Virus record (IMG/VR): IMGVR_UViG_3300024423_000001
Span: 1 to 63,851 of that record
Reading direction: 5' to 3' (one strand)
DNA: 63,851 bases
Origin: a virus
In this document: in pieces, positions 1,197-56,200 of the stretch
How positions within the stretch are numbered: position 1 is the stretch's first letter
Layout: the number at the start of each line of letters is the position of its first letter
The notes under the pieces: model-generated
Databases searched by the model: none
What the model saw: only the letters and a program-made list of their open reading frames with translations
What the model was told of the DNA's origin: nothing
Position numbers and translations under genes: made by a program

Positions 1197-1316
1197 GATT
1201 TGCCATGAGGCACACATATTTCGAGTTAGACAAAATTTTAAGGTTCGTAAATAATAAAACCATTAGCCCTTCATAAAATTGCGATAGAACGCAAATCTGT
1301 GCATCTCATGCGAAAT
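1197..1316 (+). promoter_or_regulatory. 120-bp inverted-repeat promoter module, copy 1 (radical-SAM operon)
   Basis: Distal arm 1197-1239 (inverted) and proximal arm 1275-1316 flank a 35-bp spacer with a TATA-like AATAATAAAA at spacer offset about 11. The proximal arm ends on the ATG of the radical-SAM gene at 1315. The same 43-35-43 geometry recurs at 10399-10517 and 12641-12760 (minus genes) and 56486-56605, with a direct-repeat variant at 42720-42840. I read it as a TATA promoter flanked by two operator arms; the transcription start would fall a few nt inside the proximal arm. Confidence 0.7.
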
Positions 1317-2301
1317 GACCATAGGGTTCTTGAGGATAAACAACTCTTGCAATCTAAACTGTAAGTATTGTTACCTTCGAGACAATAAGCCTGCTGAACT
1401 CGATCTATCGATTCTGGATGACATCATAGAATTCTGCCATCGTGAACGTATTCAGACAATCGAGATCCCGCAACAAGAACCGTTACTGAATGAGAAACTA
1501 TTTCGTGAGATTGTCGAGAGACTCTTCGCAAATCACATCCGAGTCCGGGGTGTTACTACGAATCTCACCAACCTCGGCCAGAAGACGCTCGACCTACTCT
1601 GGAAATACGAGATTCACGTGCTGGTCTCTTATGACTCCCTGTGGCATGACCAGTTTCGTCGTACCAAAGCAAATGAACCAACCCGCTCGATAGTCGAAAG
1701 GAACATGGAGAAGCTGAAATCATCCGAGGTTCGGTTCTCGATTGCAATAACAGTTCCGAGTGCTGGGTGTCCACTCTTGCATGAAGCAGTAAGTCAAGCA
1801 ATAGGGTATTCCGATTCAGTAGCTTTGAACTTCGATGTTGTTTCCGACTATGGCCTCCGGGAATCAGACTTGCCTGTGTTAGAGGAGCAACTTCGTGAGG
1901 TTTATCGGGATTGTCCTTATATCTTTCCATTCTGGAAGATCCGAAATAGATTGATGTCAGGTTGGCGACTCGAGAACATTGCATGTGGCGCAGGTCGTGG
2001 TTCACTAACGATCAACTACAATGGAACTCTCTATCCATGTTATCACGTGACTGGCTGGCAGCGTATTGGAATCGCTCTTGGAAATATATGGAATGGTATT
2101 GATCACGCTCAGCAGCAGAGGTTTAGACAATATGGAGCTCCTGAGCAATCGTGCAGACGGTGCCCAACAGCTATTTGTGGCGTCTGCTATGTGAACTCTT
2201 ATCTCACTGTGGGTAACATGCTCAAACCGATACCAATCGAGTGTAAGTTGAAGAGGCTGCTAACAAAGGTCGTGAGAGATGGCATACATAGCAGCGCTTG
2301 A
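1315..2301 (+). CDS. Radical SAM/SPASM peptide maturase
   Basis: 328 aa. The radical SAM cluster motif CNLNCKYC supplies C12, C16 and C19 (CxxxCxxC). A C-terminal SPASM-type region (about residues 220-310) has the typical pattern: a Cys before a Gly-rich turn, YPCYH, CRRCP, CGVCY and a final ECKL. SPASM enzymes bind auxiliary Fe-S clusters and most modify ribosomally made peptides. The gene overlaps the next one by 23 nt, and that gene encodes a protein with Cys at every fourth residue, so a maturase-substrate pair is the natural reading. The start ATG lies at the end of the promoter module. It is not NrdG-like: it is too long and carries SPASM. The class and SPASM domain are clear; the substrate is inferred. 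Confidence 0.85.
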   Translation: MTIGFLRINNSCNLNCKYCYLRDNKPAELDLSILDDIIEFCHRERIQTIEIPQQEPLLNEKLFREIVERLFANHIRVRGVTTNLTNLGQKTLDLLWKYEIHVLVSYDSLWHDQFRRTKANEPTRSIVERNMEKLKSSEVRFSIAITVPSAGCPLLHEAVSQAIGYSDSVALNFDVVSDYGLRESDLPVLEEQLREVYRDCPYIFPFWKIRNRLMSGWRLENIACGAGRGSLTINYNGTLYPCYHVTGWQRIGIALGNIWNGIDHAQQQRFRQYGAPEQSCRRCPTAICGVCYVNSYLTVGNMLKPIPIECKLKRLLTKVVRDGIHSSA

Positions 2302-2758
2302 TTTCGAGAAGTGGGAGAACCATAAGGCATACTATACAATCTGGGTTAAGGATTGCATACCAGAAGAGCATTACTACAATTGCGTATATTATAACGACCG
2401 TCCGAAGAATTCATGTGGCAAGATTCCTTCAGGAAATGAATATACTCAAGAATGCTACGTCAGCGGAGGAAGCATCGACTATGGTGGCAGAACATACACA
2501 GCCAAGCTATGGTTGGACCGTTGTGAAGAAGGCACTTACGAGGACTCTGAGTCGCTATTTATTCCTACTGATCCTGATCTTTGTGAGATTCAGTGCCAAA
2601 CAAGTTGTGAAATTGCCTGCCAAGGTAGCTGTGAAGCTGTTTGCCAATCTTACTGCGAATTAAACTGTCAGACACAGTGCGAACTCAGCTGCCAGACTGC
2701 ATGTCAAGTAACCTCTCAGTTCTGCGGTCGAGATTGTGGACGTGGTTGTGGAAGATGA
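2279..2758 (+). CDS. Cys-every-4 repeat protein, candidate radical-SAM substrate
   Basis: 159 aa. Residues 1-100 form a Tyr/Cys-rich N-terminal domain with about five scattered Cys. From residue 102 to 142 there are 11 cysteines spaced exactly four apart, alternating CExx and CQxx, then Cys 149, 153 and 157 in a Gly-Arg tail (CGRDCGRGCGR). On a helix such spacing puts all thiols on one face; in a crosslinked peptide it gives a regular ladder. Translation is coupled to the upstream radical-SAM gene (overlap) and to the downstream gp10-like gene (4-nt overlap). There is no signal peptide or obvious protease-cut leader. Possible roles are a thioether-crosslinked (sactipeptide/ranthipeptide-like) product, a rigid virion spike, or a metal-binding protein. 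Confidence 0.8.
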   Translation: MAYIAALDFEKWENHKAYYTIWVKDCIPEEHYYNCVYYNDRPKNSCGKIPSGNEYTQECYVSGGSIDYGGRTYTAKLWLDRCEEGTYEDSESLFIPTDPDLCEIQCQTSCEIACQGSCEAVCQSYCELNCQTQCELSCQTACQVTSQFCGRDCGRGCGR

Positions 2759-3258
2759 TCAAACTCACAACGTCTGGAGGATTGAGCATTCGGAGTCAGA
2801 TTCAGCAAGACGTTTCGCGAATCCTGGAAGACCTTGCACGAGATTTTCTCAGGAAAGTTCAATCCAATGTCCTCAAACAACGAGCAGTGGATAGAGGTAT
2901 TCTTCTCAGGTCATTCAGAATACAGAGACCCGATCCTCTCACAAGAAGGGTGGTGAGCACAGCCAGACACGCATCGGCAGTCGAGTGGGGCAGACCTCCA
3001 GGTCGCCTTCCACCCGTCGGTGTGATAAGAGAGTGGGTGATCAGGAAGGGCATCATGAGAGGTGCAGAGCAGTTAAGTCTACGGGCACGTCGAAGAAAGC
3101 TACGAACTACACCGCTCGGCTGGCAAGTAGCGTGGTCGGTTGCAAAGAAGATTCAAAGACGGGGTATAGAAGAACGACCATTCTGGCGACCTGCTATTGT
3201 AGAAATCGAACGCAAGGCTAAACAGATACGATGGCGAGAGATTCTGCTCAGAAGATAG
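2755..3258 (+). CDS. HK97 gp10-like tail-completion (minor tail) protein
   Basis: 167 aa from ATG 2755, which overlaps the previous TGA; the frame stays open further upstream but that part is a shadow of the Cys-rich gene. The gp10 family pattern is visible: a helical N-terminus, an ASAVEWGRPPG segment, a Pro-flanked helix (PPVGVIREWV), an AWSVAKKIQRRG helix and the closing RPFWRPAI. These proteins join head and tail. In most siphoviruses the gene sits between connector and tail terminator; here it ends the arm, after the radical-SAM pair. It is very basic (many Arg). Confidence 0.7.
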   Translation: MIKLTTSGGLSIRSQIQQDVSRILEDLARDFLRKVQSNVLKQRAVDRGILLRSFRIQRPDPLTRRVVSTARHASAVEWGRPPGRLPPVGVIREWVIRKGIMRGAEQLSLRARRRKLRTTPLGWQVAWSVAKKIQRRGIEERPFWRPAIVEIERKAKQIRWREILLRR

Positions 3259-3362
3259 TGGAAGACATAAACGTCGAGGAGTAACCTCATATCATTAGTA
3301 GGTTATCAACTTGGGATTCCAAGATGGCAAGTGGTCTATCCTGAGGTTGCAACCTCATATCA
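3259..3362. terminator. Convergent intergenic region with palindrome and repeat
   Basis: The rightward and leftward arms meet here. The 14-bp perfect palindrome GAGGTTGCAACCTC lies at 3343-3356. A 15-bp direct repeat (AACCTCATATCAT plus two bases, one mismatch) occurs at 3283-3297 and 3351-3365, the second running into the stop of the leftward gene. A bidirectional terminator is possible but there is no clear T-tract. Confidence 0.35.
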
Positions 3363-3716
3363 TCAGTCTTGTAGCGCCAAGATAACAATCCATGCAGATA
3401 TAGCACTCACAACGATTCCCAGCCCTAAGAAACTCCAGAAGACAAAGCTCGTTAGCCATGTCAGCGCAATGCCGGTCAGGGTTATGACCTTCGGCGTAAG
3501 CCACTTCATTAGCCAGAACTGAATTAACCAGCCTGTGAATGGAACTATACTTGCCAACAATAACAGCCAGTAGATGACACAGAGCAGGAGTATAGCTGCA
3601 ACTCCATGAGCACCTTCGTACTCGAAATACGCAAGTAGAGCGAACAGTGCAGTAAGCAGAATGCAAATGCGACCAGCGTTGAGTCCGACGTTGGATTCTT
3701 CCTTTAGTTGAGACAT
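3363..3716 (-). CDS. Multi-pass membrane protein, 117 aa
   Basis: Hydrophobic almost throughout, with about three to four predicted membrane spans separated by short charged loops. It is the last gene of the leftward arm and overlaps the lipoprotein gene upstream by 13 nt. A holin or superinfection-exclusion role would fit a small viral membrane protein beside a lipoprotein, but nothing in the sequence proves it. Confidence 0.65.
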   Translation of the reverse strand: MSQLKEESNVGLNAGRICILLTALFALLAYFEYEGAHGVAAILLLCVIYWLLLLASIVPFTGWLIQFWLMKWLTPKVITLTGIALTWLTSFVFWSFLGLGIVVSAISAWIVILALQD

Positions 3717-4018
3717 TCCATCATCTCCTCGGGAGTTAGAGGTTTGACTTTAATTCCATGTTTAGATTCGTAGTCAGCCCAGTACTTCCTCGATGCTTGG
3801 TTGTAGATATTCCTATCAATGTGAATCTCTGTGACAGTGCGATCGCCTGTTTCATCCTCCACATAGTCAACATAGACATAACCGTGATTCGGATCGTAAG
3901 TACAGTAGTGGCCTGTCTCCGTTAGCTGGTCTTGAGCTGGCGAATCTACGCAACCGAGTGATAGGACTATCAATATGAAGGTCAGGATAGCGATCAGCAC
4001 CTTGCTTAAGACCCTCAA
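3704..4018 (-). CDS. Putative viral lipoprotein, 104 aa
   Basis: The N-terminus has a basic start, a hydrophobic stretch (LIAILTFILIVLSLG) and a lipobox LSLGC at about residues 19-23, followed by a polar acidic domain. This implies export and lipid anchoring at the cell surface. The start is TTG at 4018, preceded by a good GGAGGTGA ribosome-binding site and overlapping the previous stop. It is translationally coupled to the membrane protein downstream; together they may change the host envelope, for example superinfection exclusion (inference). Confidence 0.65.
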   Translation of the reverse strand: MRVLSKVLIAILTFILIVLSLGCVDSPAQDQLTETGHYCTYDPNHGYVYVDYVEDETGDRTVTEIHIDRNIYNQASRKYWADYESKHGIKVKPLTPEEMMECLN

Positions 4019-4239
4019 TTTGATGAATCACCTCCTTCTGGTTCGATTATAACTACAAAATCGAATTTGCCCTCCAAGCATTCCTTTAGACGCCGAACAG
4101 TGCAGATACGCTCAGATAATTCTGCTGCTGGTACGTAATCTTCGTCTCGCATCATTTCATTCAGGACAAACTCTTTCCATCTCAGCCAGTCACTGAGATA
4201 GACAGCATTCCTTCCTTCGAGAACCAGAATTTCACCCAT
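4015..4239 (-). CDS. Tandem small-protein family, member 1 (74 aa)
   Basis: Starts at ATG 4239 (MGEILVLEG); an in-frame TTG two codons upstream is less likely. It keeps the family ending (CLEGKFDFVVI) but adds a short Ser-rich tail. It is the most downstream copy in the array and is followed directly by the lipoprotein TTG start. Function unknown. Confidence 0.7.
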   Translation of the reverse strand: MGEILVLEGRNAVYLSDWLRWKEFVLNEMMRDEDYVPAAELSERICTVRRLKECLEGKFDFVVIIEPEGGDSSN

Positions 4240-4486
4240 CGACAACTATCACAATATTGAACTTACCATTGAACGCTCGATTGATATAGCGAATCTCCCA
4301 TAATGTCTCGATAGTTTCATCTTCTATCTCTGACAATCTCTGATCATACTCTTCTGAATCCTTGAGACACTCTTTATAAGCCTCCTCCAGTTCCTCGAGA
4401 TACTCTTCCAAACTCTCTTTCTCTAAGGAAAGAGCAGAAAGACTCCATCTGTTGGAGTCCGGTTCCAGAATGTATACTTCACTCAT
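4232..4486 (-). CDS. Tandem small-protein family, member 2 (84 aa)
   Basis: Start ATG 4486 (MSEVYILEP) overlaps the previous stop; the frame is open to 4660 but that part is a shadow. A strongly acidic, coiled-coil-like middle (EEYLEELEEAYKE) lies between the N-terminal strand and the ending FNGKFNIVIVVDG. Closest by eye to member 3 (shared WEIRYI). Confidence 0.7.
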   Translation of the reverse strand: MSEVYILEPDSNRWSLSALSLEKESLEEYLEELEEAYKECLKDSEEYDQRLSEIEDETIETLWEIRYINRAFNGKFNIVIVVDG

Positions 4487-4721
4487 CATTGATAATGACA
4501 ATATCGAATCGTCCCTTAAGCGCTTGATCAATATATCGAATTTCCCAAACCGCCTCTTGGAATAGCTCTCGGATCGTCTTTGCTTCCAGTGACCGTGGAT
4601 CGCACTTTGGCAGTAACCGCTTAAACCTCTCAAGACGCTTGATAAGAATCCTCCGTTCACTTAGGAGGCTTGTAAGATCCCAGCTATTGCAGTGCCGTTG
4701 TAGGATATACACCTCACCCAT
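4479..4721 (-). CDS. Tandem small-protein family, member 3 (80 aa)
   Basis: Start ATG 4721 (MGEVYILQ). It shares WEIRYIDQALKGRFDIVII with its neighbours. The middle is more basic than in member 2, so family members differ greatly in charge while keeping both ends. Confidence 0.7.
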   Translation of the reverse strand: MGEVYILQRHCNSWDLTSLLSERRILIKRLERFKRLLPKCDPRSLEAKTIRELFQEAVWEIRYIDQALKGRFDIVIINDE

Positions 4722-4953
4722 CGGCAATGATGACTATGTCAAACTTACCGTCGAGTGCCTGATCTATAAATCGAATGTCGCGGCGGACCTCGTAAAGATT
4801 CTTCATCAGCGTCTCTTGGTATTCAGGTTCAGAACCTATCTCCAACCGAGTCTCTAAGTCCTCAAGTTCGAGGAGGAGAGCCTGCTTCACAAGTGTGAGA
4901 GAGCTGGACTGCCACACATCGCCAATTCGCTCGATAATGATGACGTCACTCAT
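4714..4953 (-). CDS. Tandem small-protein family, member 4 (79 aa)
   Basis: Start ATG 4953 (MSDVIIIER). Ends RFIDQALDGKFDIVIIADG. The stop overlaps the next ATG in the arrangement conserved across the array. Confidence 0.7.
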   Translation of the reverse strand: MSDVIIIERIGDVWQSSSLTLVKQALLLELEDLETRLEIGSEPEYQETLMKNLYEVRRDIRFIDQALDGKFDIVIIADG

Positions 4954-5176
4954 GCACCACGATGATATTGAACTTGCCTGCAAGCGCTGACTCAATGTCA
5001 CGTAAAGATCTGTATGTCTCGTAAAGATCATCGAGAACTCGATGTTCCATCGAAGGTGATAGATCTCCCTCCAATACGGCTTCCAGATGACTGAGTTTGC
5101 GAATTTGCCAGTCGCGTGTCTTTGTAAGTCTCTCTAACGCGCCTCCCAACTGATGCACGATAACAACTTCAGGCAT
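4946..5176 (-). CDS. Tandem small-protein family, member 5 (76 aa)
   Basis: Start ATG 5176 (MPEVVIVHQ); an upstream in-frame ATG at 5194 lies inside the previous gene and breaks the family pattern. Ends IESALAGKFNIIVVHE. Confidence 0.7.
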   Translation of the reverse strand: MPEVVIVHQLGGALERLTKTRDWQIRKLSHLEAVLEGDLSPSMEHRVLDDLYETYRSLRDIESALAGKFNIIVVHE

Positions 5177-5378
5177 CGATGCGCGATTCATCATCAGACT
5201 GCTTCTTTCTGTGGTATATCTCTTTGTTGATCTTTGCTATAATATCTTTCGTTTCTGCTATCCTGTCTAATAAACGATTTTCCCTCCTCTGTTGTATGCT
5301 TCTGTAATGGCTAAGGTACCAAATCGTCCTCTTCCGTTTCATCTTCCTACTCTTCTCAAGAATACGGTCTACATCCAT
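5169..5378 (-). CDS. Divergent array member, basic helical protein (69 aa)
   Basis: It occupies the position of an array unit but has lost both family strands. It is highly charged and helical (RKMKRKRTIWYL, then a long helix with KDIIAKINKEIYHRKK). Its start overlaps the previous stop as in the rest of the array. It may be a degenerate paralogue or an unrelated insertion. Confidence 0.55.
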   Translation of the reverse strand: MDVDRILEKSRKMKRKRTIWYLSHYRSIQQRRENRLLDRIAETKDIIAKINKEIYHRKKQSDDESRIDA

Positions 5379-5623
5379 CACACGTCCACCACGACAAGAT
5401 TTAGAGAACCTGACAGCAGTTGCTCAAGATGGCGCAAGGCCAGCCGTAGAACGTAGATCCGATCGAGAAGCTCCTCTTCTCTCTCCGTAAATGGAGAATG
5501 TGCTCGGTTCGAGAAATACTCCTCGAGCGCTCGGAGCTCAAACTGATGCGTTCCTACTGCGCGTGATAGTACTCGTACCTGGATTGCTCTCCCATTCCGC
5601 TTGTAAACCACAACTTCAGGCAT
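5378..5623 (-). CDS. Tandem small-protein family, member 6 (81 aa)
   Basis: Start ATG 5623 (MPEVVVYKR), ending HLEQLLSGSLNLVVVDV. Its ending resembles the distant copy at 9869-10147 (QLLTGDLNLIL) more than the other array members do, which hints at where that copy came from. Confidence 0.7.
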   Translation of the reverse strand: MPEVVVYKRNGRAIQVRVLSRAVGTHQFELRALEEYFSNRAHSPFTEREEELLDRIYVLRLALRHLEQLLSGSLNLVVVDV

Positions 5624-5858
5624 CCGCAATTATCACGATATCAAACCGTCCGCTTAAAGCTCTCTTGACTTCCGAGAGTGGCCAGTAGTTCCAAGCTAAC
5701 TGATCAAGAAGGCATTTCTCTACGCCCGAATCCAACTCAGGCTTGTTCAAAGAATCTTCCAACAGGTTAAGTCTCCGAAGCAACTCATTACGTCTACGAG
5801 AGAGGACTGTGCGTTTCCGTTGTCGTTCTTCGCATTCGTATATCACAACTTCCGCCAT
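5616..5858 (-). CDS. Tandem small-protein family, member 7 (80 aa)
   Basis: Start ATG 5858 (MAEVVIYEC), ending VKRALSGRFDIVIIADA. It is the most upstream copy. Its first 65 nt lie inside the 3' end of the RNase H gene in another frame, an unusually long overlap for this genome. Confidence 0.7.
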   Translation of the reverse strand: MAEVVIYECEERQRKRTVLSRRRNELLRRLNLLEDSLNKPELDSGVEKCLLDQLAWNYWPLSEVKRALSGRFDIVIIADA

Positions 5859-6258
5859 AATTAAGTATTCGATTCGCCAGTTCGTCTGCTCTACGAAGAT
5901 AGACTTCGTCTCGTGGTATCTTTCTCAGTATAGGCCAGTGGCTGAACATCGAGAGTAAGATCTGGATTGTAGAGTTGAGTTTCTCGAGTTCTGAGTTTCG
6001 AATCTGCCAACGGCCGAGTAGCTGGTTAACCACGAGAGCGCTATCAGAACAGACAACTATTTGATCATCACTACTCGCCTTTACGATTTCTAGCGCTCGC
6101 TGGACTGCTTTGTATTCCGCAACGTTATTAGTGGTTTGACCAAGATACTCCGAGTGCTCCAATACAACTCGACCTTCTTTGAGCACTACTATTCCAACTG
6201 CTGCCTCTCCAGGATTACCTCGACTCGCTCCATCCACATAGATCTTGATTTCAGCCAT
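5794..6258 (-). CDS. rnhA: Ribonuclease H (RNase HI type)
   Basis: 154 aa. Type 1 RNase H motifs are present: IYVDGASRGNPG (first catalytic Asp), NNVAEYKAV (catalytic Glu), VCSDSALVVNQL (second Asp) and RRADELANR (last Asp). The enzyme removes RNA from RNA-DNA hybrids, for example primers made by the viral primase. It is about the usual length, but its last 20 residues overlap the first array gene and may be a recent extension. The gene overlaps the 78-aa ORF upstream. Confidence 0.9.
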   Translation of the reverse strand: MAEIKIYVDGASRGNPGEAAVGIVVLKEGRVVLEHSEYLGQTTNNVAEYKAVQRALEIVKASSDDQIVVCSDSALVVNQLLGRWQIRNSELEKLNSTIQILLSMFSHWPILRKIPRDEVYLRRADELANRILNYGGSCDIRMRRTTTETHSPLS

Positions 6259-6487
6259 AGGCTACATCCTCCCGCTTGCCCCGTTGAATTGCCTCCTTCA
6301 ACGACTTGAACTCACGTATCACACCGTCAGCCTCAAAGTATCTGATAATATTTCCGAACTGTTCTGCCTGGCCCTTGACACGTTCCGCACCTGCAAGAAC
6401 GAAGTCCACATAGTCTTCGACATCCTTGATCGTTCTGACTTCCTTCAGAACTTCCTCCAATCTTTTCTCATCCTGCTCTTCGGTCAT
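6251..6487 (-). CDS. Hypothetical acidic helical protein, 78 aa
   Basis: Start ATG 6487 forms an ATGA overlap with the NrdD stop, so the two are translationally coupled; the longer upstream frame is a shadow of nrdD. The protein is helical and charged (MTEEQDEKRLEEVLKEV). Position between nrdD and rnhA suggests a nucleotide or DNA metabolism link, but the family is unknown. Confidence 0.65.
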   Translation of the reverse strand: MTEEQDEKRLEEVLKEVRTIKDVEDYVDFVLAGAERVKGQAEQFGNIIRYFEADGVIREFKSLKEAIQRGKREDVAYG

Positions 6488-8253
6488 GCACCTATTCGAT
6501 ACGGAGTCCGATCTCTCCACTCCGATTGCTTTCCTTCGTTCCATGCCCTCACGTTCGATAGATAACCTACGACTCGTGAGAAGACATCCGCTGGACCACC
6601 ACATTCAGGGCATCGCCAATGCTCACCTGAGAAAGTCTGATGGCACTTTGAGCACACACTAAACGTTGGTGTGATTGTGAAGTATGGTAGGCAGGTTCGA
6701 TTCACCAGTCTTTCAGCTAAGAATGGAATTACTCTCGCATCGGGACGCTCGGGTAAGAATACATGGAACACAGTTCCACCAGTATACAACCGCTGAAGTT
6801 GCTCTTGATGCCTCACTGCTTTACCTAAGTTCTGGGTGTATCCGACCGGGAGCATCGTCGAGTTAGTGTAGTAGGGCGCCTTCCGATTGCCTGAAACGTA
6901 ACAGCCTGGTAGGGACTTGACGTCGATCTTTGCAAGTCTATGCGAACACCCCTCGGCAGGTGTTGCTTCAAGGTTCCACAGGTCGCCAGTCTCTTCCTGA
7001 TATTCAACCAGTCTCTCTCTCATCACGATCAGGACTCTCTTCATCAGGTTCAGACCTTCAGGATCGGCAATCGAGCAACCTAAGAAATTCTGACATGCCT
7101 CTTCGCCACCTACGAGCCCGATGGTCGAGAAGTGATGATCGAATCCTGGCAGAAAGTTTCGCGAATATGGCATGAGGCCTTCATTGAAGCTCCTGTTACA
7201 AATCGCTCGTTTGATGACCAATGACTGCTTTGCCAGATCCATGTAATGTACGACGTTCTCGAAGAACTCTGATTCGTCTTTGGAGAGGTAAGCGAGTCTG
7301 GCAAGGTTCAGAGTAACGACTCCGATACTGCCCGTAGTATCGCCGAAGCCGAACAAGCCACCTGTCTTTCTTTTAAGTTGGGTTAGATCCAAACTCAAGT
7401 GACAGCACATTGAACGGACATCGTGACGTTTCAGGCCGGTGTTCTCTGAACAGTTTTGGAAGTATGGGATCCCGAACTTTGCGGTTACCTGTGCTAATTT
7501 TCTACCTACTTCAGTATCCCAACTGAAAGCGTCATCCATGAGATAAGTTGGTATTGGAAACCTGAACACTCCGCCGTTCGCATCTCCTTCTTCCAGTACG
7601 TCCAAGAATGCCAGATTAAACATCTCGATCTCTTGCTCAAAATCACCGTATACCTTATCCTGTAACTGACCACCCACGATAACGGCTTGGTCCTTGAGGT
7701 CATCAGGAGGAACGAGGTCGAGTGTAAAGTTCAAGAACGGGCTTTCCAAGCCCCACCTGGTCGGTTCATTCACCCCATACACGAACTCCTGGATCGTTTG
7801 TTTGACTTGGTTGAAAGTCAGCCCATCGTAATAAATGAAGGGAGCCAACAGCACGTCGACTGAATTCCAGGCCATAGCACCCGCCCACTCCTGTTGCAAG
7901 ACTCCAACAGCATTCATCAGTTGACCTAATGCAGATGAGAAGTGTCTTGGTGGACGACTCCGAACTACACCGGGCGGACCGCTGAAACCGCGAGACAGTA
8001 GATCTTGTAAACTCCAACCACTGCAATAGCCGACTATACCCGCTCCTAGGTCATGAATATGAAAGAACCCCTCCGTATGCGCCTTCGCTATCTCCGGAGG
8101 ATAGACATGTTTCAATACATATCGAGCTATCTCAGACTCCGCAAGATATGCCTTCAAACCTCCAACTGACCTTATACGGTTGGCATTCTCGTTTGCACCA
8201 TCAACACGACTTCGCCAAGTTCGACCCTTGATATATGTCTCCACTCTACTCAT
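6484..8253 (-). CDS. nrdD: Anaerobic ribonucleoside-triphosphate reductase (class III), large subunit
   Basis: 589 aa. Reduces ribonucleotides to deoxyribonucleotides using a glycyl radical; strictly anaerobic. Visible features are the FHIHDLG segment near residue 63, the CCHLSLDL region mid-protein, the zinc site C534/C537 and C548/C551 (CSKC, CPEC) and the radical-glycine loop RVVGYL with G563. It lacks the N-terminal ATP cone of longer cellular enzymes, as in T4-type phage NrdD. No nrdG activase was found in the genome, so the host activase is probably used. It overlaps neighbours on both sides. Confidence 0.92.
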   Translation of the reverse strand: MSRVETYIKGRTWRSRVDGANENANRIRSVGGLKAYLAESEIARYVLKHVYPPEIAKAHTEGFFHIHDLGAGIVGYCSGWSLQDLLSRGFSGPPGVVRSRPPRHFSSALGQLMNAVGVLQQEWAGAMAWNSVDVLLAPFIYYDGLTFNQVKQTIQEFVYGVNEPTRWGLESPFLNFTLDLVPPDDLKDQAVIVGGQLQDKVYGDFEQEIEMFNLAFLDVLEEGDANGGVFRFPIPTYLMDDAFSWDTEVGRKLAQVTAKFGIPYFQNCSENTGLKRHDVRSMCCHLSLDLTQLKRKTGGLFGFGDTTGSIGVVTLNLARLAYLSKDESEFFENVVHYMDLAKQSLVIKRAICNRSFNEGLMPYSRNFLPGFDHHFSTIGLVGGEEACQNFLGCSIADPEGLNLMKRVLIVMRERLVEYQEETGDLWNLEATPAEGCSHRLAKIDVKSLPGCYVSGNRKAPYYTNSTMLPVGYTQNLGKAVRHQEQLQRLYTGGTVFHVFLPERPDARVIPFLAERLVNRTCLPYFTITPTFSVCSKCHQTFSGEHWRCPECGGPADVFSRVVGYLSNVRAWNEGKQSEWRDRTPYRIGA

Positions 8254-9868: not shown

Positions 9869-10147
9869 TCACGAATACAATTCCTCCAAATCAGGTTCAT
9901 TTAACTCTAACTTCAGAATCAGATTCAGATCCCCTGTCAGCAACTGCTGCATGTGCGAGATAGCAGCCTTCAACGCAACGAGGCGCATAGATTCGAGCCT
10001 GACATGTTCAGGATAGCCTAAGTCTATCTCCTCCTCAATAAGCCTCGACAGTTCTCGCTGCTTCTCTGCTATCAGATCCGAGAACCGAATCAGCGAATTC
10101 CATTGCAGTTTGCCATGCCTGATGGGAATTATGACTACCTCAGCCAT
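9869..10147 (-). CDS. Distant copy of the tandem small-protein family (92 aa)
   Basis: Begins MAEVVIIPI and contains AISHMQQLLTGDLNLILK, matching the N- and C-terminal strands of the array at 4015-5858, with an extra acidic tail (NEPDLEELYS). It lies about 4 kb upstream of the array in the same transcription direction. Closest to member 6. Confidence 0.65.
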   Translation of the reverse strand: MAEVVIIPIRHGKLQWNSLIRFSDLIAEKQRELSRLIEEEIDLGYPEHVRLESMRLVALKAAISHMQQLLTGDLNLILKLELNEPDLEELYS

Positions 10148-28815: not shown

Positions 28816-29714
28816 TGAAGCTTGTTCTGTTAGGCACGGGAGATGGTAAGGTAAAGGATAGAAAGGATAGCTCATTATGGCTTGAGCGTGGTTCGGTTGC
28901 TATTCAGTTCGACCGTAGTGATGACCATCGAGATTATCAAAAGCCCGATGTGTTGTTCATAACGCATTACCATCCTGACCATTATTCCAGAGATGCAGTT
29001 GCTGGTATCGAACGGGTATACGGTCCGGAGGAGCGTGACAACGTTAAGTTGGCTAAGGCGCGGGAAGTTATTGACGACATTGAGGTTCGAGCTGTGCCGG
29101 TCGATCATTCGGTTCAGTCAAAGACAGTTGTCTATTTTGTCTTTACTCCAGAGCTGAGGTTTCTCTATGCACCTGATCTGCTAACGATGCCCGCATCTTA
29201 TGAGTTGTATCGTAGACTTGACCTCTATATCGGTTGTGGTTCTTCTCCAGATCGTGACATTGTCTATGCAACTCCGGACGGTGAAGTTGGGCATATCTCT
29301 ATGAGAAACCAAGAGAAGTTCGTCAGACGATTAGCACCAAGCGCGAGAATAGTATGGACTCATATTTCTGAAGAGACTGGGAGTCAAGTTGACGGATTGC
29401 CGAATGATGGTAATGTCATATTCGACTCCGAGAGTGAGACAAGAAAGGCGCTGGACTATCTCGTGTGGATACCTGGGTTCATTAGTCAGACAGGTTCAAG
29501 TGTGTATGGGAAGTTGGTGGGCAATGAGGTTCGATCGCCTGACCAGGCTCGTGATATTGACATAGTGATGAGGTTCGAGGAACGGCTTGGAAGGCTGTAT
29601 CTCGACCGGGCTGCGAGGTTGAAGATAGATAGATTCGTGGAGGCTGTTCGAGGTTCAAAACCTCAGTGGCAGAAAGGAGATGAGTCGCGTCTTATTGTTG
29701 AGGAACTGCATTGA
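28815..29714 (+). CDS. Metallo-beta-lactamase-fold hydrolase fused to a nucleotidyltransferase-like domain
   Basis: 299 aa. N-terminal MBL fold: ITHYHPDHY (H51, H53, D55, H56), a later His in VDHSVQ, Asp in YAPDLL and His in WTHISEE complete the metal ligands. No beta-CASP insert. The C-terminal 100 residues show the minimal NTase pattern GSSVYGKLV then DIDIVMRFE (GS...DxD). A nuclease plus nucleotidyltransferase directly upstream of a ligase suggests nucleic-acid end processing. The NTase call is by motif only. Confidence 0.65.
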   Translation: MKLVLLGTGDGKVKDRKDSSLWLERGSVAIQFDRSDDHRDYQKPDVLFITHYHPDHYSRDAVAGIERVYGPEERDNVKLAKAREVIDDIEVRAVPVDHSVQSKTVVYFVFTPELRFLYAPDLLTMPASYELYRRLDLYIGCGSSPDRDIVYATPDGEVGHISMRNQEKFVRRLAPSARIVWTHISEETGSQVDGLPNDGNVIFDSESETRKALDYLVWIPGFISQTGSSVYGKLVGNEVRSPDQARDIDIVMRFEERLGRLYLDRAARLKIDRFVEAVRGSKPQWQKGDESRLIVEELH

Positions 29715-32313
29715 GTTGGAGGGTGACCGTGTCAAGGTCAATCTTCCCTATGATGATAGAGGTTATTATCTACCGCTGCAGCCTGACGATATATTGAAGA
29801 AGGCGGGGCTTGGTGGTGATTTGATCTTCAGTTCGTATGGTCCTGACTGGACTCATCGTCCGCTGTATGATCTCGTGTTCTTTGTGACTGAGAAAGGTTT
29901 CGATCTTGGGCTGGTGGAGTCCCAGGTTCCAGCAACTGAGATAGTGGATCTTGATGCTCCGACGGTTCAACAACAATTCTTGGCACAACTTCGGAAGGCA
30001 GGCTATTATTCAAAGGCGAAACCTCGCTATCGACTCTTTGGCAAGACGTTCTTCGAGGACTTGAAAGGTCAGGGATTCGAATATCCTCTATTGGTAGATG
30101 TCAAGGCTGATGGGCTTCGTATATCGCTTGGGAAGGAGGACGGTAAGCCATTCATCTGGGTTGATCCGGAGGACTTAAAGCGGAAGAGCCCGGATTGTAC
30201 GGATAGATTTCCGGCAATAGTGAAGGATTTGGAGAAGTTGCCTGACGATACCATATTGGATGGTGAGTTCATTGCGGTCAAGGGAAATGAGGCACTGCAT
30301 AGAACGGTTGCAAATGCGCTGATGAATTCCAAAGCCGCACCTGAGGATCTATCGCCGTGGGCAGCAATATTCGTCTTCGATATACTGAAATACGATGATA
30401 GGGACTTGAGGGACCTGCCGCTGTCTGAGAGGCTCAAGTATCTTGCGAAGCTGCCAAAGTTCGATCGCATTGTGGTCGAGCAGCCATCGGAGAAGTTGGA
30501 CGGTAAGCATCCTGCTTATATTGTTCGGTCAGACGATGAGATGGAGAAGGCTATTGATCTTATACGTGATTCGAAGACGGGGATATGGGAGAAGGCTGCG
30601 GAAGGTGTAATGGTAAAGAAGCTTGATCATCCTTATGAAGTGCCGCAGAATCACGGATGGTGCTTGAAGGGAGGGTCTTACTTACTGACGCCAGAAGGGT
30701 TCATTCAGATAAAGTATCTCGAGCCAGGCATGGAGGTATTGGCTGGAGACGGTAAGTTCCACAGGATTAAGCGGGTATTTCAGCGAGCAATGACGTCTGA
30801 GGATGAAATCATTGAGATAAATACTCATTATTCTCCTAAGGTGAGATTAACTGCGGATCATAAGGTTTTAACGACAGTGGGCTGGGTTGCTGCTGGTGAT
30901 CTATGGGGTCCATTCAGAGAACCTAAGTTGAGTGTAGAGGTTCCAGAACCTCCGAAGAAGGTTGAACTCCAGATCTGGGGCTATCGGAAGAAGATAGATC
31001 TGACTCCAGATTTGCTTAAGGCTATCGGTTTTATTCTGGCGGAAGGGTCGTTCGTGACGAGTGCTTCGGGCCGATGGGCATACCAAGGAATTCGGGTGGG
31101 GGCTAAGCAGGATTTAGGTTGGTTTAGGGGAATAATTCAGCAGTCTCTCGGCGTTAAGTGTGGGGAATGGACTTATCCAGATAAATCGGTTGTTGAGTTC
31201 TATGATCCTCCATTCGCTCAGTGGTTGCGGGATACATTCATTGCTAATCATAGCAAATCTTACGGAACGAAGAATATACGTTGGAAGACTTATCAGATTA
31301 AAATCCCTCTTTGGTTTGCGAAGTTAACTGAGGAGCAGTGGTTAGGATTCGTAGAAGGATATTGGCTTGGTGATGGGTATCGAGGACGAAAATTTAGAAT
31401 AGGAACGTCGTCATCCTATATGGCTGGTACGCTTTATTTGGTTGCTAAGTTGCGAGGCTGGGATGCGACGGTGAATTGGGCTGGAACGAGAGGTGAGAAT
31501 TCGTTCAAGGTTTATCTTTCCCCGACTCTTATCGAAAAGACTAAGAGACCATCCATTCGTAAGGTCGAAGTAAGTTCTGTTCATCGGAGTCTCGACCTGC
31601 TGTGGGATCTTGAGATTGAGGGAGAACGATCGTATTCAAATGGTGAGGTGGTGTTCCATAACTCGAAGATGAAGTGGTTGCACGAGGCAGATGTTGTTGT
31701 TCTCGCTCGTAAGTTAGTCAAAGGGCAGACAGATGTGTGGAATTACGAATTGGGCATTAGCATTACAGAGGATTATGCTCGTAAGATTCCGGTTCAAAGA
31801 CTTGCGTGCATTGATGGAAGCGAGGCTTACTTTGGTCCAGAGGCGGTCCAGCGATTTGGCAAGCAGGGAGTTAAGTGGTTCATGAGGTTCGGCAAGTCAG
31901 ATAATACCAAACTCGATTTGAGGGTAGGTGATGTTCTTCGAGTAGCGCCTGAAGAGGTCTTGGAGGAACCAAATGAGGAGAATCCCGATTATCCAGTATA
32001 TAGAGGTTATATTTCCATTGCTCTTGAGCCGGTGCCGGAAAAGGATCGGTCAGATGACTTGAAGGTCTTTGAACGGTTGGCAGAGGAGGAGCCACAGAGG
32101 ATTTCGGTAGAGGAGCTGAAGAGATTACGACGGCAATCATTGGAGAAGGCTCGTATATATCTACGACCGGGTGAAGTAGCTCCGCCTGGTGTCGAGGTCA
32201 AGCGAGGTCCACGTGGCGGTCGATACTATGAAACCGAGGAGACTGAGGAGCGACCAGCTGAGAAGTTCAGAATAGTCATCTTTACGAAGGAGGGCAAGAG
32301 GATACATCGATGA
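29680..32313 (+). CDS. ATP-dependent DNA ligase interrupted by an intein
   Basis: 877 aa including a 334-aa intein (residues 328-661). Ligase nucleotidyl-transfer motifs: I VKADGLR (K142), III LDGEFIAV, IIIa IFVFDIL, IV EGVMVKK, V SKMKW after the intein. An OB-like region follows, then a linker PPGVEVKRGPRGGRYY, a tract common in phage morphogenesis proteins. It overlaps the MBL gene by 35 nt; a TTG near 29718 is an alternative start. The TGA at 32311 is followed by an open frame in register to 33111. A ligase inside the head module is unusual and may act on packaged or ejected DNA. Confidence 0.82.
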   Translation: MSRVLLLRNCIELEGDRVKVNLPYDDRGYYLPLQPDDILKKAGLGGDLIFSSYGPDWTHRPLYDLVFFVTEKGFDLGLVESQVPATEIVDLDAPTVQQQFLAQLRKAGYYSKAKPRYRLFGKTFFEDLKGQGFEYPLLVDVKADGLRISLGKEDGKPFIWVDPEDLKRKSPDCTDRFPAIVKDLEKLPDDTILDGEFIAVKGNEALHRTVANALMNSKAAPEDLSPWAAIFVFDILKYDDRDLRDLPLSERLKYLAKLPKFDRIVVEQPSEKLDGKHPAYIVRSDDEMEKAIDLIRDSKTGIWEKAAEGVMVKKLDHPYEVPQNHGWCLKGGSYLLTPEGFIQIKYLEPGMEVLAGDGKFHRIKRVFQRAMTSEDEIIEINTHYSPKVRLTADHKVLTTVGWVAAGDLWGPFREPKLSVEVPEPPKKVELQIWGYRKKIDLTPDLLKAIGFILAEGSFVTSASGRWAYQGIRVGAKQDLGWFRGIIQQSLGVKCGEWTYPDKSVVEFYDPPFAQWLRDTFIANHSKSYGTKNIRWKTYQIKIPLWFAKLTEEQWLGFVEGYWLGDGYRGRKFRIGTSSSYMAGTLYLVAKLRGWDATVNWAGTRGENSFKVYLSPTLIEKTKRPSIRKVEVSSVHRSLDLLWDLEIEGERSYSNGEVVFHNSKMKWLHEADVVVLARKLVKGQTDVWNYELGISITEDYARKIPVQRLACIDGSEAYFGPEAVQRFGKQGVKWFMRFGKSDNTKLDLRVGDVLRVAPEEVLEEPNEENPDYPVYRGYISIALEPVPEKDRSDDLKVFERLAEEEPQRISVEELKRLRRQSLEKARIYLRPGEVAPPGVEVKRGPRGGRYYETEETEERPAEKFRIVIFTKEGKRIHR
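30661..31662 (+). mobile_element. Intein with LAGLIDADG endonuclease in ligase motif V
   Basis: 334 aa. The first residue is Cys (CLKGGSYLLTPEG), the last two His-Asn (VVFHN), and the +1 extein residue Ser 31663-31665, all classical. Block B-like TADHKVLT is present. The two endonuclease motifs are IGFILAEGS and FVEGYWLGDGY. Exteins join HGW to SKMKW, restoring motif V, whose Lys is catalytic, so the ligase stays inactive until splicing. A typical homing site choice. Confidence 0.9.
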
Positions 32314-37706: not shown

Positions 37707-38400
37707 AACGGGAGAAATGAGGAGAATCGAATTAGATTCTGGGGAGATTGAATTCTTGTATACTCGTTGTGGGTTTACGAAACGGGAAATTGCTCAAAGG
37801 TTAGGAGTCAGTTTCAGCACTATAAAGCGGGCGTTCCAGCGGTTTGGGATTCTCACCAATCCTCATTACAGGAGGCGACCAAAGAAGTCTCGTCGGATAA
37901 GCGAAGTCGCAAGCAAGCGAATGAAGGAGAGGTGGGAATTGGAGCGGGACAGAATGCTTGAGGTTGCAAGGCAGGCGAGTACGTTTTATAAGGGTAGAGC
38001 ACCTTGGAATAAGGACCTGTCGAAAGAGGTGAGCGCTAAGGTTAAACTTGCTGCTCTTAAGCGAAGCATTAGAATGGGACCTGTCTATATTTCTGAGGAG
38101 TATAGACAGAAGAGATCGGAAGCTGCTAAGGGACGTAATAATCCGAACTGGCGAGGTGATATTTCGTGCTTGCCTTACGATCCCTGTTTCAATAACGATC
38201 TTAAGCGAAAGATTAAGGAGAGAGATGGCTACAGATGTCAAGTCTGTGGCGTGACAGAAGAAGAGTCATTAGCTCGTGGACATGGTTATCTTGTGGTCCA
38301 TCATCTCGATGGTAATAAGCAAAACTCTGATCCCCAGAATCTAATAACTTTGTGCAATAGTTGTCATACCCGATGGCATCGTAGTCACTCCCGTGAACAA
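37707..38400 (+). mobile_element. Archaeal bulge-helix-bulge intron in the capsid gene
   Basis: 694 nt. Exon helix CGTCGTTA (37693-37700) pairs with TAACGGCG (38402-38409; one G-U). The central 4-bp helix GTTC (37701-37704) pairs with GAAC (38395-38398). Three-nt bulges are ATA (37705-37707) and AAA (38399-38401), on opposite strands. The intron helix ACGGGAG (37708-37714) pairs with CTCCCGT (38388-38394). This is the canonical hBHBh' substrate of archaeal EndA, which cuts after the second bulge base. The cut restores the capsid frame precisely. There is no room for a group I core outside the ORF. Confidence 0.88.
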
Positions 38401-38421
38401 ATAACGGCGTTCCGATCATAG
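37717..38421 (+). CDS. HNH homing endonuclease encoded in the BHB intron
   Basis: 234 aa. N-terminal HTH (KREIAQRLGVSFSTIKRAF), basic linker with NUMOD-like repeats, C-terminal HNH: KERDGYRCQVCG, VVHHLDGNKQN, NLITLCNSCHTRWH with two CxxC zinc knuckles. It starts 10 nt into the intron, and its last seven codons and TAG lie in exon 2. It probably spreads the intron to intronless capsid genes. Archaeal BHB introns usually carry LAGLIDADG enzymes, so an HNH is unusual. Confidence 0.88.
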   Translation: MRRIELDSGEIEFLYTRCGFTKREIAQRLGVSFSTIKRAFQRFGILTNPHYRRRPKKSRRISEVASKRMKERWELERDRMLEVARQASTFYKGRAPWNKDLSKEVSAKVKLAALKRSIRMGPVYISEEYRQKRSEAAKGRNNPNWRGDISCLPYDPCFNNDLKRKIKERDGYRCQVCGVTEEESLARGHGYLVVHHLDGNKQNSDPQNLITLCNSCHTRWHRSHSREQITAFRS

Positions 38422-44331: not shown

Positions 44332-45015
44332 ATGGTTCGGATATTTACTTGTGATGAGCGAGATCGGATATGTCATCTTTACAGGTTAGGCTGGGGTCAG
44401 TCGCGGATTGCCAAATTGTTTGGATGCTCTCATAGTACGATCCGCAGAGTCTTAATAGAGGAACTCGGACAGCGGGAATTTGAGCGCATTGCTAAGACAC
44501 ATAATTGGTCACCTGGCTCGGGGCGAACACAATTTAGGACGGGGCATTCGGTTCCGTGCGAATGGATAAGGAAGCGAGTTGAAGTTGTTCGCGAACGGGG
44601 TTTCTCGGAGAGAGGTAGACGTCACATTAGCCAAGCACTTAGAGGCATCGAGCGCAGTGAAAAGTGGAAGGCTAAGCATCGAGGTGAACATCATTGGAAT
44701 TGGAAGGGTGGAGTCTCAAGAGGCAAGACTACACTTGACAGGTATGGTATGTCTCAGGATGAATGGAAGATCCTTGCACAGAAGATTCGCAAGCGCGACA
44801 ACTTTACTTGCCAGTGGTGTGGTTGCAAGCGAGCGACAGTAGTGCATCACATAGTTCCAGTCAGGGTTGGAGTTGATAATCATCCAGACAACTTGATCAC
44901 ATTGTGTCGGCGTTGTCATCCTGAGGTTGAGGCTCTGACAGAGGAATATCTTGAGCAAGCTCGGCATCCAATAGAGGTATTCTTCGACAGGTGGCAAAAT
45001 GGTCAACTTGTATAA
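44332..45015 (+). CDS. Free-standing HNH homing endonuclease
   Basis: 227 aa. N-terminal HTH (QSRIAKLFGCSHSTIRRVL), NUMOD-like centre and HNH: KRDNFTCQWCG, VVHHIVPVRVG, NLITLCRRCHPE. The gene before ends normally and the next gene begins inside this one's end, so no intron is evident; I checked for a BHB fold at its ends and found none. Related by layout to the intron HNH. Confidence 0.85.
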   Translation: MVRIFTCDERDRICHLYRLGWGQSRIAKLFGCSHSTIRRVLIEELGQREFERIAKTHNWSPGSGRTQFRTGHSVPCEWIRKRVEVVRERGFSERGRRHISQALRGIERSEKWKAKHRGEHHWNWKGGVSRGKTTLDRYGMSQDEWKILAQKIRKRDNFTCQWCGCKRATVVHHIVPVRVGVDNHPDNLITLCRRCHPEVEALTEEYLEQARHPIEVFFDRWQNGQLV

Positions 45016-53221: not shown

Positions 53222-56200
53222 ATGGGTTGGTTATCGGGATACCAATATAGGAAGAAAGTAACGATATCGGGTTCAAGTGGAGCTGGACAGTACTATCAGG
53301 TCAAACTGTCCATTGGTAGCTCGTCAGGTGGTGACTTCCATTTAGAGGGGCATTGTACGGACTTTCCCAATGACATACGGTTCACTGATGATGATGGCGA
53401 GACACTGTTGGACTACTGGATAGAAGATCCTACACAAGACCCGATTACGGTATGGGTCGAAGTCAAGGATAATCTGGATAATGACGTGGACATCTATTGT
53501 TACTATGGGAAAAGCGGTGCCAGTTCTGCGAGTGATAGCGAGGCGACTTTTGAGTTTTATGATGATTTTGAATTTGGAAGTTTGGTCTCATGGGATTATG
53601 GAGATTATGGATTTGGTGGTAATACGAATCCTGTTTTTGTGCATGATATAGATGGGGATGGACAGAAAGAGATAATTCTTGCGCGCCTGGAACATGAAAA
53701 CAAGCTTGTGGTTCTAAATCATGATGGAAGTCACAGGTTTACATTTACGGGCGATGATACCGATATAAGCTTTGATTACCATGCAATTGCATTTGCGGAT
53801 GTAAATGGTGATGGCAAAGATGAAATAATCTTTGGCTCTGATAAGGTATATGCGATTGATTATAATGGCAACGAGCTGTGGTCGTATGACCCGGAAACAT
53901 ACTATTATTATTCTGATTATTCTGGCAAGAACGTACGTGTGATAGCGTTAGATGCGGCAGATATTGACAATGATGGCGATATAGAGACAGTAGCGTTGAT
54001 ACACGATTCGTCTTCCGACCATTCTTCTCAAAACCAAGTAGTGGACTGCATAAAGAAAGATGGGTCGGGGAGAAAATGGAGATGGGGACCGACGACTGCC
54101 AATGCAGTCGCCCATTACCTTCTACTTGCACGATTAGATCAGTCGTCCAATTATTACCATATAATTTTCACAGATGCAAGCCAGCTATGGTGTCTCAAGC
54201 ATGATGGTACAGAACAGTGGCATAATACTGATGCTCATGACTCTGATATGCATATGGCTGTCAATGTAAATGAGTCATCGGATAATCTGGAAGTTCTTGC
54301 ATGCGGAAAGGATAAATTTTGTGCTATCAACCTTGATGGTTCAATGTACTGGTCATACAACACAGGACACACTCAAGAGTTCGATGTTGCAGATGTAAAT
54401 AACGATGGACATTATGAAATTGGTGTGTTTAATAACTATGATGACCATCTATTCATATTTTCTCATGATGGAAATAAGCTATATGATGGCTATGTCAGTG
54501 GAATAGGCTGGAATGGTCTTATAAATGCGGTCAAGGTGGATGGCAACTGGTATTTTGCGATTGGGGATAGATTGTATAACCATAATGGTTGCGTGGGCAA
54601 ATGTTTAAAGTTTATAGGTACAACGAAACACTTCAATTACAAACATCATATTTTTGGTTACTCTCCCGATTTTGATAATGATAATGCTGAGGAACTCATC
54701 GGGAATAGTTGTATTGGAGAAATTGAAATTGCCCCGTGGACTGCTCAGACTGGGTGCTTTGACCTTGTGGGAGAATCAGGGAACGGCATAGCGAAGGGAG
54801 TAACGAACGGAGCTAATCTTGTGACTCACAATATGGCAGATATAGGTGTTGGAAAGGCTATTAGGGCTAAAATTAGAGCTGATGATGATTATAGTGGTAC
54901 TGGAATTATCTTCGGTTACCAAGACTCTTCTAATTTCTATCATGTAAGAGTTGATAACGGGGAGGATGAACTCCAAATATACGAATGGGTTTCAGGCTCG
55001 GCAAGTAAAAAGGGAAGTGCATCAGTAACGATTAGCACAGGAACATGGTATGTCTTGGAAGCTATATGGAGCGGAGCGAATTCAATAGAAGCAAAGCTTT
55101 ATGATGTGGATGGAAATGAATTGGCATCAGCCTCTGCAACAATGACTGGAGGCTTCTCAAGCGGTAAAATAGGATTCAGAACTTATAATAGAGGCAGTTA
55201 TGATGATTTTCGTGTTCGCAAATACGCCGACCCGGAGCCAACATTCAGTAGTGCGAATGCAGAAGAGACAGGACCTATGCAGAAATCATCTTTGGATGCA
55301 GGTGCAGCGATTGATTCTACCAAGTTAGCAAGTTCAAACACACGTCCGGATGCAGGATTGGTTACTGAAATGCAAAGTGTTGGCTTATCTCAATTTGATG
55401 CGGGAGATGGGGTAGAGGTGCTATCGCTGGCTTCCATGTTTGAGATTATGGATTCGGGGCTTATAGTCGAAGGTGAATCTCTAATTGGAGAAATAGTTAG
55501 CATAGATGCGGGTTACTTTACAGACCTTGAGCTACTTGGGGTAATACTCTCAGTCCTCGAGTCAGGCGGTTTTGAAGAGTCAAGTCTTCTTGAGACGCTG
55601 CTATTGAAGTTCGCATCTGACTCATGTATTTCATTTGATTCAATGTCACTTGTCTCTTATTGCCTTGGTTCGGACTCAGTAATATCTGAAGAGGCTCGGA
55701 GTTTTCAATCCAGCTTTGAATCTCTTGACTCGGGATTTGTCATAGAATCCAGATTTATAGTCGGTCAAGTATTGAGTTTAGAGGTTAGCCTCGCAAGTGA
55801 GACTCGTTCGTTGGCAGGTATCCTTAGCGCTGTTGAACATGCGGATGGGATCGATTTAGCCGCGGTCTTCTCGGTGTTATTAGGGCTGGATCTCGGCGAG
55901 CCATTCGAATCGAGCTACCTACCGAGCCTAACTTACAAATCGTCCTCCGATTCGGGTATTCTTATTGATTCAGAGTTGGTTCACTCATTGATTAAAGTGG
56001 CTGAGAAAGCTCACTCAGCGACTGCGCGGCAGCTCGCAGCATCATCATCCTCGATGGATTTCGGATCGGTTTCGGACATGAAGCGGCTGACGTCTGGTCT
56101 AACCGGTTCGGATCTGAGTTCATTAGTGGATGTTTCTCGCTTAACGGTAATACTTAGTAGACCGGAGATAGCGGTTTACATTGAGGATAGACCATTGATT

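What the first reader, a model, noticed from the sequence alone, without database searches (positions are those of the whole stretch)
4015..5858. Tandem array of about eight related small proteins
Seven of eight overlapping genes share both terminal strands (MxEVxI and GKFDIVI) but have highly variable charged middles; the eighth member has lost both strands. A ninth relative lies at 9869. Such repeated duplication with variable middles is what one expects of fast-evolving counter-defence proteins or of subunits of a mixed assembly.
Basis: partly seen in the sequence, partly recalled or inferred. Interest (0 to 1): 0.62.

Follow-up and report, generated by a model that had tools for sequence, protein, structure and literature searches.

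The report
Expanding tandem gene array in virus
A virus that probably infects archaea carries a row of seven distantly related small genes whose number and make-up differ in its nearest known relative, as one would expect of a gene set that grows and shrinks during a conflict with the host, though what the proteins do is not known.

Summary
On the minus strand, 4015-5858, lie eight overlapping genes. Seven (A, B, D-H), plus a ninth gene at 9869-10147, form one protein family: each scores 19-77 bits against a model of the others, with 0 of 999 shuffles as good. The odd gene C (5169-5378) shows no kinship. Paralogs are only 17-40% identical and share codons no more than chance, so the duplications are old. 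Six of seven junctions are the same 8-base stop/start overlap, ATGNNTGA, which by itself forces the "MxE" start and the D-x-stop end; the hydrophobic strands are real protein conservation.

No close relative was annotated, but a junction pattern found one: a virus contig with the same neighbours (64-92% identical proteins), where the array has three intact and two broken copies. The broken first copy is the ortholog of A, the next copy of E, so B-C-D were gained or lost as whole genes. Models show a beta-hairpin plus helical hairpin; the conserved C-terminal segment has no partner in the monomer.

Best reading: a birth-and-death family of host-directed small proteins (counter-defence or takeover), with a constant platform and a variable helical face. 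Function is untested; a mixed assembly remains possible.

The parts
5616..5858 (-). Array member A (80 aa), first copy; its start lies inside the 3' end of the RNase HI gene (65-base overlap)
   Evidence: 57.4 bits leave-one-out, 0 of 999 shuffles; broken ortholog in L106 2409-2630
5378..5623 (-). Array member B (81 aa)
   Evidence: 48.7 bits, 0 of 999 shuffles; 8-base overlap with A; no ortholog in L106
5169..5378 (-). ORF C (69 aa, pI 10.1), inside the array but not shown to belong to the family
   Evidence: 5.7 bits, 42 of 999 shuffles as good; keeps an 8-base overlap with D
4946..5176 (-). Array member D (76 aa)
   Evidence: 59.9 bits, 0 of 999 shuffles
4714..4953 (-). Array member E (79 aa); the only intact member with a clear intact ortholog (a in L106, 62%)
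   Evidence: 77.2 bits; score 244 against 111 for the next member; AlphaFold2 model mean pLDDT 84.3
4479..4721 (-). Array member F (80 aa)
   Evidence: 63.7 bits; AlphaFold2 model mean pLDDT 88.9
4232..4486 (-). Array member G (84 aa), very acidic (net -15)
   Evidence: 60.7 bits
4015..4239 (-). Array member H (74 aa), last copy, shortened helices
   Evidence: 20.0 bits, 0 of 999 shuffles
9869..10147 (-). Dispersed ninth gene I (92 aa), 1.6 kb upstream of NrdD
   Evidence: 19.1 bits, 0 of 999 shuffles
5794..6258 (-). RNase HI, directly upstream of the array in both viruses
   Evidence: Pfam PF00075 6.9e-14; ortholog in L106 2003-2455
6484..8253 (-). Anaerobic ribonucleotide reductase NrdD, two genes upstream of RNase HI's array; conserved neighbour
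   Evidence: 83% identical to L106 9-1781

Best explanation
A tandem birth-and-death gene family of a tailed virus with an archaeal-type capsid protein. SHOWN: seven homologous genes in a row plus one dispersed copy; a uniform 8-base stop/start overlap at 6 of 7 junctions; ancient divergence of the copies; different copy number, whole-gene gain or loss (B-C-D between A and E) and decay of copies in a close relative. INFERRED: the genes are translated as one coupled unit, because the starts have no Shine-Dalgarno-like motif and sit on the upstream stop codon. The proteins share a small fold (beta-hairpin, two long antiparallel helices, a conserved C-terminal strand). The conserved ends make a constant platform, probably by strand pairing between subunits, and the variable outer face of the helical hairpin binds a target. 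Because every junction is built alike, recombination between junctions adds or removes whole reading frames without breaking the neighbours. The most likely role is early binding and inhibition of host proteins (defence or other), each copy tuned to a different target or target variant, copies being lost when their target is gone.
For: Family and array. Old divergence: 17-40% identity among window members and codon sharing at identical residues 175 observed against 172.7 expected. Junctions: pattern finds 4 sites in the window against a mean of 0 in 100 shuffles, all seven junctions printed; elsewhere in the window -8 overlaps are 4 of 85 neighbouring pairs and -4 overlaps 17 of 85, in a crude gene set. 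No Shine-Dalgarno-like 4-mer before any of the 7 family members of the array, against 60 of 89 other genes by a laxer rule. Turnover: L106 a, b, c intact, a0 and d broken; A/a0 score 134 against 48 for the next, E/a 244 against 111. E/a is the lowest of 14 ortholog identities. Fold: the C-terminal 10-12 residues low in confidence and unpaired in both models though highly conserved. Precedent: T4 amplifies the small inhibitor gene tifA at 6-10 bp microhomologies (PMC9391042, passages read).
Against: No target, no activity and no described counter-defence family matches. Only one relative was found, so gain and loss cannot be told apart and the number of events is unknown. dS is saturated: no sign of positive selection could be measured, and dN of only 0.31 with saturated dS in E/a speaks for purifying selection on that copy. 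The charge of members runs from basic F and b to very acidic G, with no single surface theme. Nucleotide-metabolism and RNase H neighbours do not point to counter-defence. Two frameshifted copies in a metagenome contig could in part be assembly errors.
Confidence: 0.42

Rival explanations
1. Subunits of a mixed (heteromeric) assembly: the members pair through their terminal strands into a ring, filament or hetero-oligomer of the virus's replication or nucleotide-metabolism machinery, one subunit type per gene.
For: Tight stop/start overlaps couple translation; overlapping unidirectional pairs 'often encode subunits of heteromeric complexes' (PMC10666635, title seen in the listing). The most conserved segment is an unpaired strand in the monomer models. 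Members differ strongly in charge, pI 4.1 to 8.7.
Against: The relative does without B, C and D, has copies without clear orthology in place of F-H, and has two broken copies; a fixed stoichiometry would not tolerate that.
Confidence: 0.25
2. Duplication without diversified function: an ordinary small accessory protein whose gene duplicates easily at 8-base repeats, copies drifting under weak constraint.
For: Broken copies at both ends of the array in the relative; short repeats at each junction.
Against: Seven copies in the window are all open, keep both conserved termini and a hydrophobic helix pattern at 17-40% identity; neutral copies would have decayed long before such divergence.
Confidence: 0.15
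3. Small DNA-binding or regulatory proteins (ribbon-helix-helix-like: N-terminal strand plus two helices), each copy reading another site.
For: Strand followed by two helices; small size; tandem regulators occur in viruses (recalled).
Against: The models have a beta-hairpin and helices of 21 and 24-25 residues, longer than ribbon-helix-helix helices (recalled); 6 of the 11 members have a net charge of -6 or lower; no Pfam match shared by several members.
Confidence: 0.08

Closest known systems
tifA of phage T4 and segmental amplification of anti-defence genes (PMC9391042; SegB-driven amplification, PMC13096335)
   Same: Small inhibitor gene (85 aa) multiplied head to tail in a virus under host pressure; boundaries at 6-10 bp microhomology, comparable to the 8-base junctions here
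   Different: T4 copies are new and identical and raise dosage; here copies are old, 17-40% identical, each an overlapping gene of its own, and no defence target is known
Coupled overlapping gene pairs in archaea and bacteria (PMC6728339, PMC10666635; abstracts' starts seen in the listing)
   Same: Stop and start codons overlap, so translation is expected to be coupled by termination-reinitiation
   Different: The usual overlaps are -4 and -1; here an -8 overlap ATGNNTGA is repeated at 6 of 7 junctions of one family
Tailed viruses of haloarchaea (HCTV-5, HVTV-1) and Caudoviricetes sp. vir519 of Methanofastidiosa
   Same: These archaeal tailed viruses make up the only 9 records that match the major capsid protein of the window (27-29% identity)
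   Different: None was found with the array protein: tblastn of member E gives no credible match in 50,697 phage records

Membership tests
Segmentally amplified counter-defence gene (tifA type) | Head-to-tail copies of one small gene in a virus | tested here: met
   7 homologous copies in 1.84 kb
Segmentally amplified counter-defence gene (tifA type) | Copies recent and nearly identical (dosage effect) | tested here: not met
   17-40% amino-acid identity among window members, codon sharing at chance level
Segmentally amplified counter-defence gene (tifA type) | Repeat boundaries at short microhomology | tested here: inconclusive
   ATGNNTGA at 6 of 7 window junctions and 3 of 4 in L106; no fresh duplication was seen, so use as a recombination site is inference
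Segmentally amplified counter-defence gene (tifA type) | The protein neutralises a host defence | not testable with these tools
   Needs an assay
Described protein families, curated anti-defence models included | Match of several members to one curated model | tested here: not met
   Pfam: 10 families, each hit by 1 of 9 members, best 8.8e-4; PHROGs: 12 families, 1 of 9 members each, best 0.02; NCBIfam: 7 families, 1 of 11 members each, best 0.0092
Heteromeric complex encoded by one operon | Coupled translation of the subunits | tested here: inconclusive
   Overlaps and missing Shine-Dalgarno-like motifs fit coupling; not measured
Heteromeric complex encoded by one operon | Same set of subunits kept in close relatives | tested here: not met
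   L106: clear orthologs of A (broken) and E only; 3 intact, 2 broken copies
Ribbon-helix-helix proteins | One N-terminal strand, two short helices (recalled) | tested here: inconclusive
   Models: hairpin of two strands, helices of 21 and 24-25 residues; fold searches unspecific

The most novel reading that the evidence does not exclude
A protein-diversification cassette of an archaeal virus. One conserved junction (C-terminal strand codons, ATGNNTGA stop/start, N-terminal strand codons) serves three ends at once: it couples translation of the copies, gives recombination a repeated site at which whole genes enter or leave without a frame error, and encodes the two strands by which neighbouring copies complete each other's sheet. 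The virus could thus deal out changing sets of binders on one common scaffold.
Probability: 0.15. Interest if true: 0.75.

Novelty: new variant of a known kind. Interest (0 to 1): 0.45.

Why it matters
Copy-number change of anti-defence genes is known from recent, identical repeats. Here the same kind of change seems frozen into an old family of diverged, translationally coupled copies, in a virus for which no near annotated relative was found. If the members are inhibitors, the array is a ready-made list of host targets in a poorly known archaeon, and copy gain and loss could be read off natural populations. The junction also shows how an apparent protein motif (MxE) can be dictated by an overlap with the upstream stop codon.

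Tried and rejected
Family searches: Pfam, PHROGs, NCBIfam and the PDB sequences gave only single-member or coiled-coil matches. Fold searches (Foldseek PDB and BFVD on the model of F, VIA-align on both models) gave no match with E <= 0.001 and no Z of 8 or more: generic helical hairpins (Get1, histidine-kinase dimerisation domains, designed bundles), so no fold family is claimed or excluded.

Relatives: PolB, array members and near-DNA search found nothing. NrdD found one distant contig without the array. NrdD and hub-protein alignments of window and L106 found only the L106 contig again. A terminase alignment found 80 distant loci; 50 of the 80 were searched as whole records with the family model, 0 of 50 matched. 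A wide junction pattern gave 89 stretches (80 of them listed), among which only L106 carries the family. The family model was run on 185 of the 203 loci then held, the 18 left out being the window's and L106's own: best E 0.31, none credible. 156 genomes of the phylum of an Aenigmatarchaeota genome: 4 of 156 with weak matches (best 3.7e-5) inside long open frames of 205-808 aa, taken as chance helix matches. Host: not determined; NrdD relatives are mixed bacteria and DPANN archaea.

Considered and dropped: C as a frameshifted copy (no other frame matches); recent gene conversion between copies (codon sharing at expectation); a resolved tree of copies (0 of 9 inner branches starred); dN/dS (dS saturated in most pairs). 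Paper searches without a hit.

Full report
WHAT IS THERE. The window is a virus record of 63,851 bases. It encodes a terminase, portal region and a capsid protein whose only matches among 50,697 phage records are 9 archaeal tailed viruses, so the virus is most likely archaeal; its host is unknown. Gene order in the relative (hub gene, then the 162-aa gene, then the radical SAM gene) joins the end of the window to its start, so the record is probably a circularly permuted, nearly complete genome.

Eight overlapping genes lie on the minus strand at 4015-5858, behind genes for NrdD, a 78-aa protein and RNase HI. Seven of them and a dispersed ninth gene at 9869-10147 belong to one family: in a leave-one-out profile test each of the 8 scores 19.1-77.2 bits and none of 999 shuffles of itself does as well. 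C (5169-5378) scores 5.7 bits and 42 of 999 shuffles equal it; no other frame over that stretch matches. C is a basic (pI 10.1) ORF of unknown origin, not a proven member.

ANATOMY. Residues 1-8 and the last 10 are the best conserved parts (mean pairwise identity 0.49 and 0.43, against 0.24-0.26 in the helices and 0.09-0.15 in turn, second strand and loop). Identical residues in window paralogs use the same codon 175 times in 519, 172.7 being expected from codon usage: the likeness is at the protein level and old. Pairwise identities among window members are 17-40%.

Six of seven junctions are an 8-base overlap, ATGNNTGA; B-C differs. In a crude gene set of the rest of the window, -8 overlaps make up 4 of 85 neighbouring pairs and -4 overlaps 17 of 85; that gene caller dropped F, so the array count rests on the sequences printed, not. 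A and I keep E3 without such an overlap, and the hydrophobic VxI and [FL][DN]IVI stretches are not forced. None of the 7 array members has a Shine-Dalgarno-like 4-mer upstream, while 60 of 89 other genes have one by a laxer rule that tries three starts; coupling by termination-reinitiation is the simple inference.

Two AlphaFold2 models, of F (8-row alignment, mean pLDDT 88.9, pTM 0.70) and E (11 rows, 84.3, 0.64), agree: strands 5-10 and 13-18, helices 19-39 and 43/45-67/68. The C-terminal tail is the least confident part (block means 68 and 63) and is not paired, although it is conserved. Either it pairs in an oligomer or with a target, or the shallow alignment failed to place it. Fold searches were unspecific.

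THE RELATIVE. Protein-based searches found no relative of the array, probably because the family evolves fast. A degenerate DNA pattern over the junction, which matches 4 junctions of the window and none in 100 shuffles, found one contig in a collection of 2.9 million: L106, IMGVR_UViG_3300021509_000108, 20.7 kb. It has NrdD, the small gene and RNase HI in the same order and then an array of three intact copies (a 2626-2862, b 2859-3095, c 3088-3333) and two broken ones: a0 (2409-2630, in three frames) and d (3326-3572, in two frames). Behind it comes a dCTP deaminase/dUTPase-like gene, where the window has two other small genes. a0 is the ortholog of A (score 134, next 48) and a the ortholog of E (244, next 111); b and c score best against E (119, 125) but without such a lead. 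Thus A and E are neighbours in L106, and B-C-D form a block gained by the window or lost by L106 at exact gene borders. The tree of copies is not resolved (0 of 9 inner branches starred).

Of 14 ortholog pairs measured, E/a has the lowest identity (61.5%; the rest 64.3-92.3%) and the highest dN (0.31; rest 0.06-0.27). dS is saturated in most pairs, so no ratio can be given for E/a. A tail-fibre-like gene (53222-56485) with only a partial match (33% over 255 residues) was not among the 14 and is likely to be even less conserved.

READING. Old, diverged, coupled copies; exact gain or loss of whole genes; decay of copies in a close relative; fastest change among the measured genes: this is birth-and-death evolution. 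In viruses that pattern is best known from proteins that face the host (recalled), and T4 gives a direct precedent for multiplication of a small anti-defence gene at 6-10 bp microhomologies (PMC9391042, passages; the SegB case PMC13096335, abstract). The step from pattern to counter-defence is inference. The main rival, a mixed assembly, gains from coupling (PMC10666635, listing) and from the unpaired strand, and loses from the free loss of copies. I put 0.42 on host-directed binders, 0.25 on an assembly.

NOVELTY. The protein family matches nothing convincing in Pfam, PHROGs, NCBIfam or PDB sequences, and within what could be searched is known from two viruses only. Tandem gene families in viruses are a known kind; the uniform junction that spares reading frames is, as far as searches show, not described for such an array, but these searches were few and the library holds open-licence papers only.

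Noticed in passing
L114 35-2997 (contig IMGVR_UViG_3300021509_000108): Csf2/Cas7 (PADLOC 1e-78) and Csf3/Cas5 (6.5e-58) of type IV, a family 2 glycosyltransferase and a PAPS-reductase/CysH-like gene just upstream of NrdD in the relative: a type IV-B-like CRISPR-Cas cluster on a tailed virus. A type IV-B system in an archaeal virus was reported for Fuxivirus (PMC10848311, passages). No such genes were noticed at this place in the window.
   Followed up: partly
window 1315-2758: A radical SAM protein with SPASM domain (Pfam 9.6e-11 and 1.8e-07) overlaps a 159-aa gene whose C-terminal half is a run of Cys about every fourth residue (CEIQCQTSCEIACQGSC...). Both are kept in L106 (72% and 69%). It looks like a peptide-modifying enzyme with its cysteine-rich substrate, in a virus.
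   Followed up: no
window 29680-32313: ATP-dependent DNA ligase (Pfam 2e-16 for residues 137-327), 877 aa long, with an insert that reads like an intein (recognised by eye, not tested).
   Followed up: no
window 37717-38421 and 44332-45015: Two free-standing HNH endonucleases with helix-turn-helix domains, one directly behind the capsid gene; homing-endonuclease-like.
   Followed up: no
window 63621 to 577: Gene order in L115 joins the end of the window to its start: the record is probably a circularly permuted, nearly complete genome.
   Followed up: partly
window 5794-5858 and L106 2409-2455: The first array gene starts inside the RNase HI gene in both viruses (65-base overlap in the window), an unusually long overlap of two different proteins.
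   Followed up: partly
window 6251-6258: RNase HI itself starts on the stop codon of the gene before it by the same 8-base overlap (ATGGCTGA), so its MAEI start resembles the array proteins by the same constraint.
   Followed up: yes
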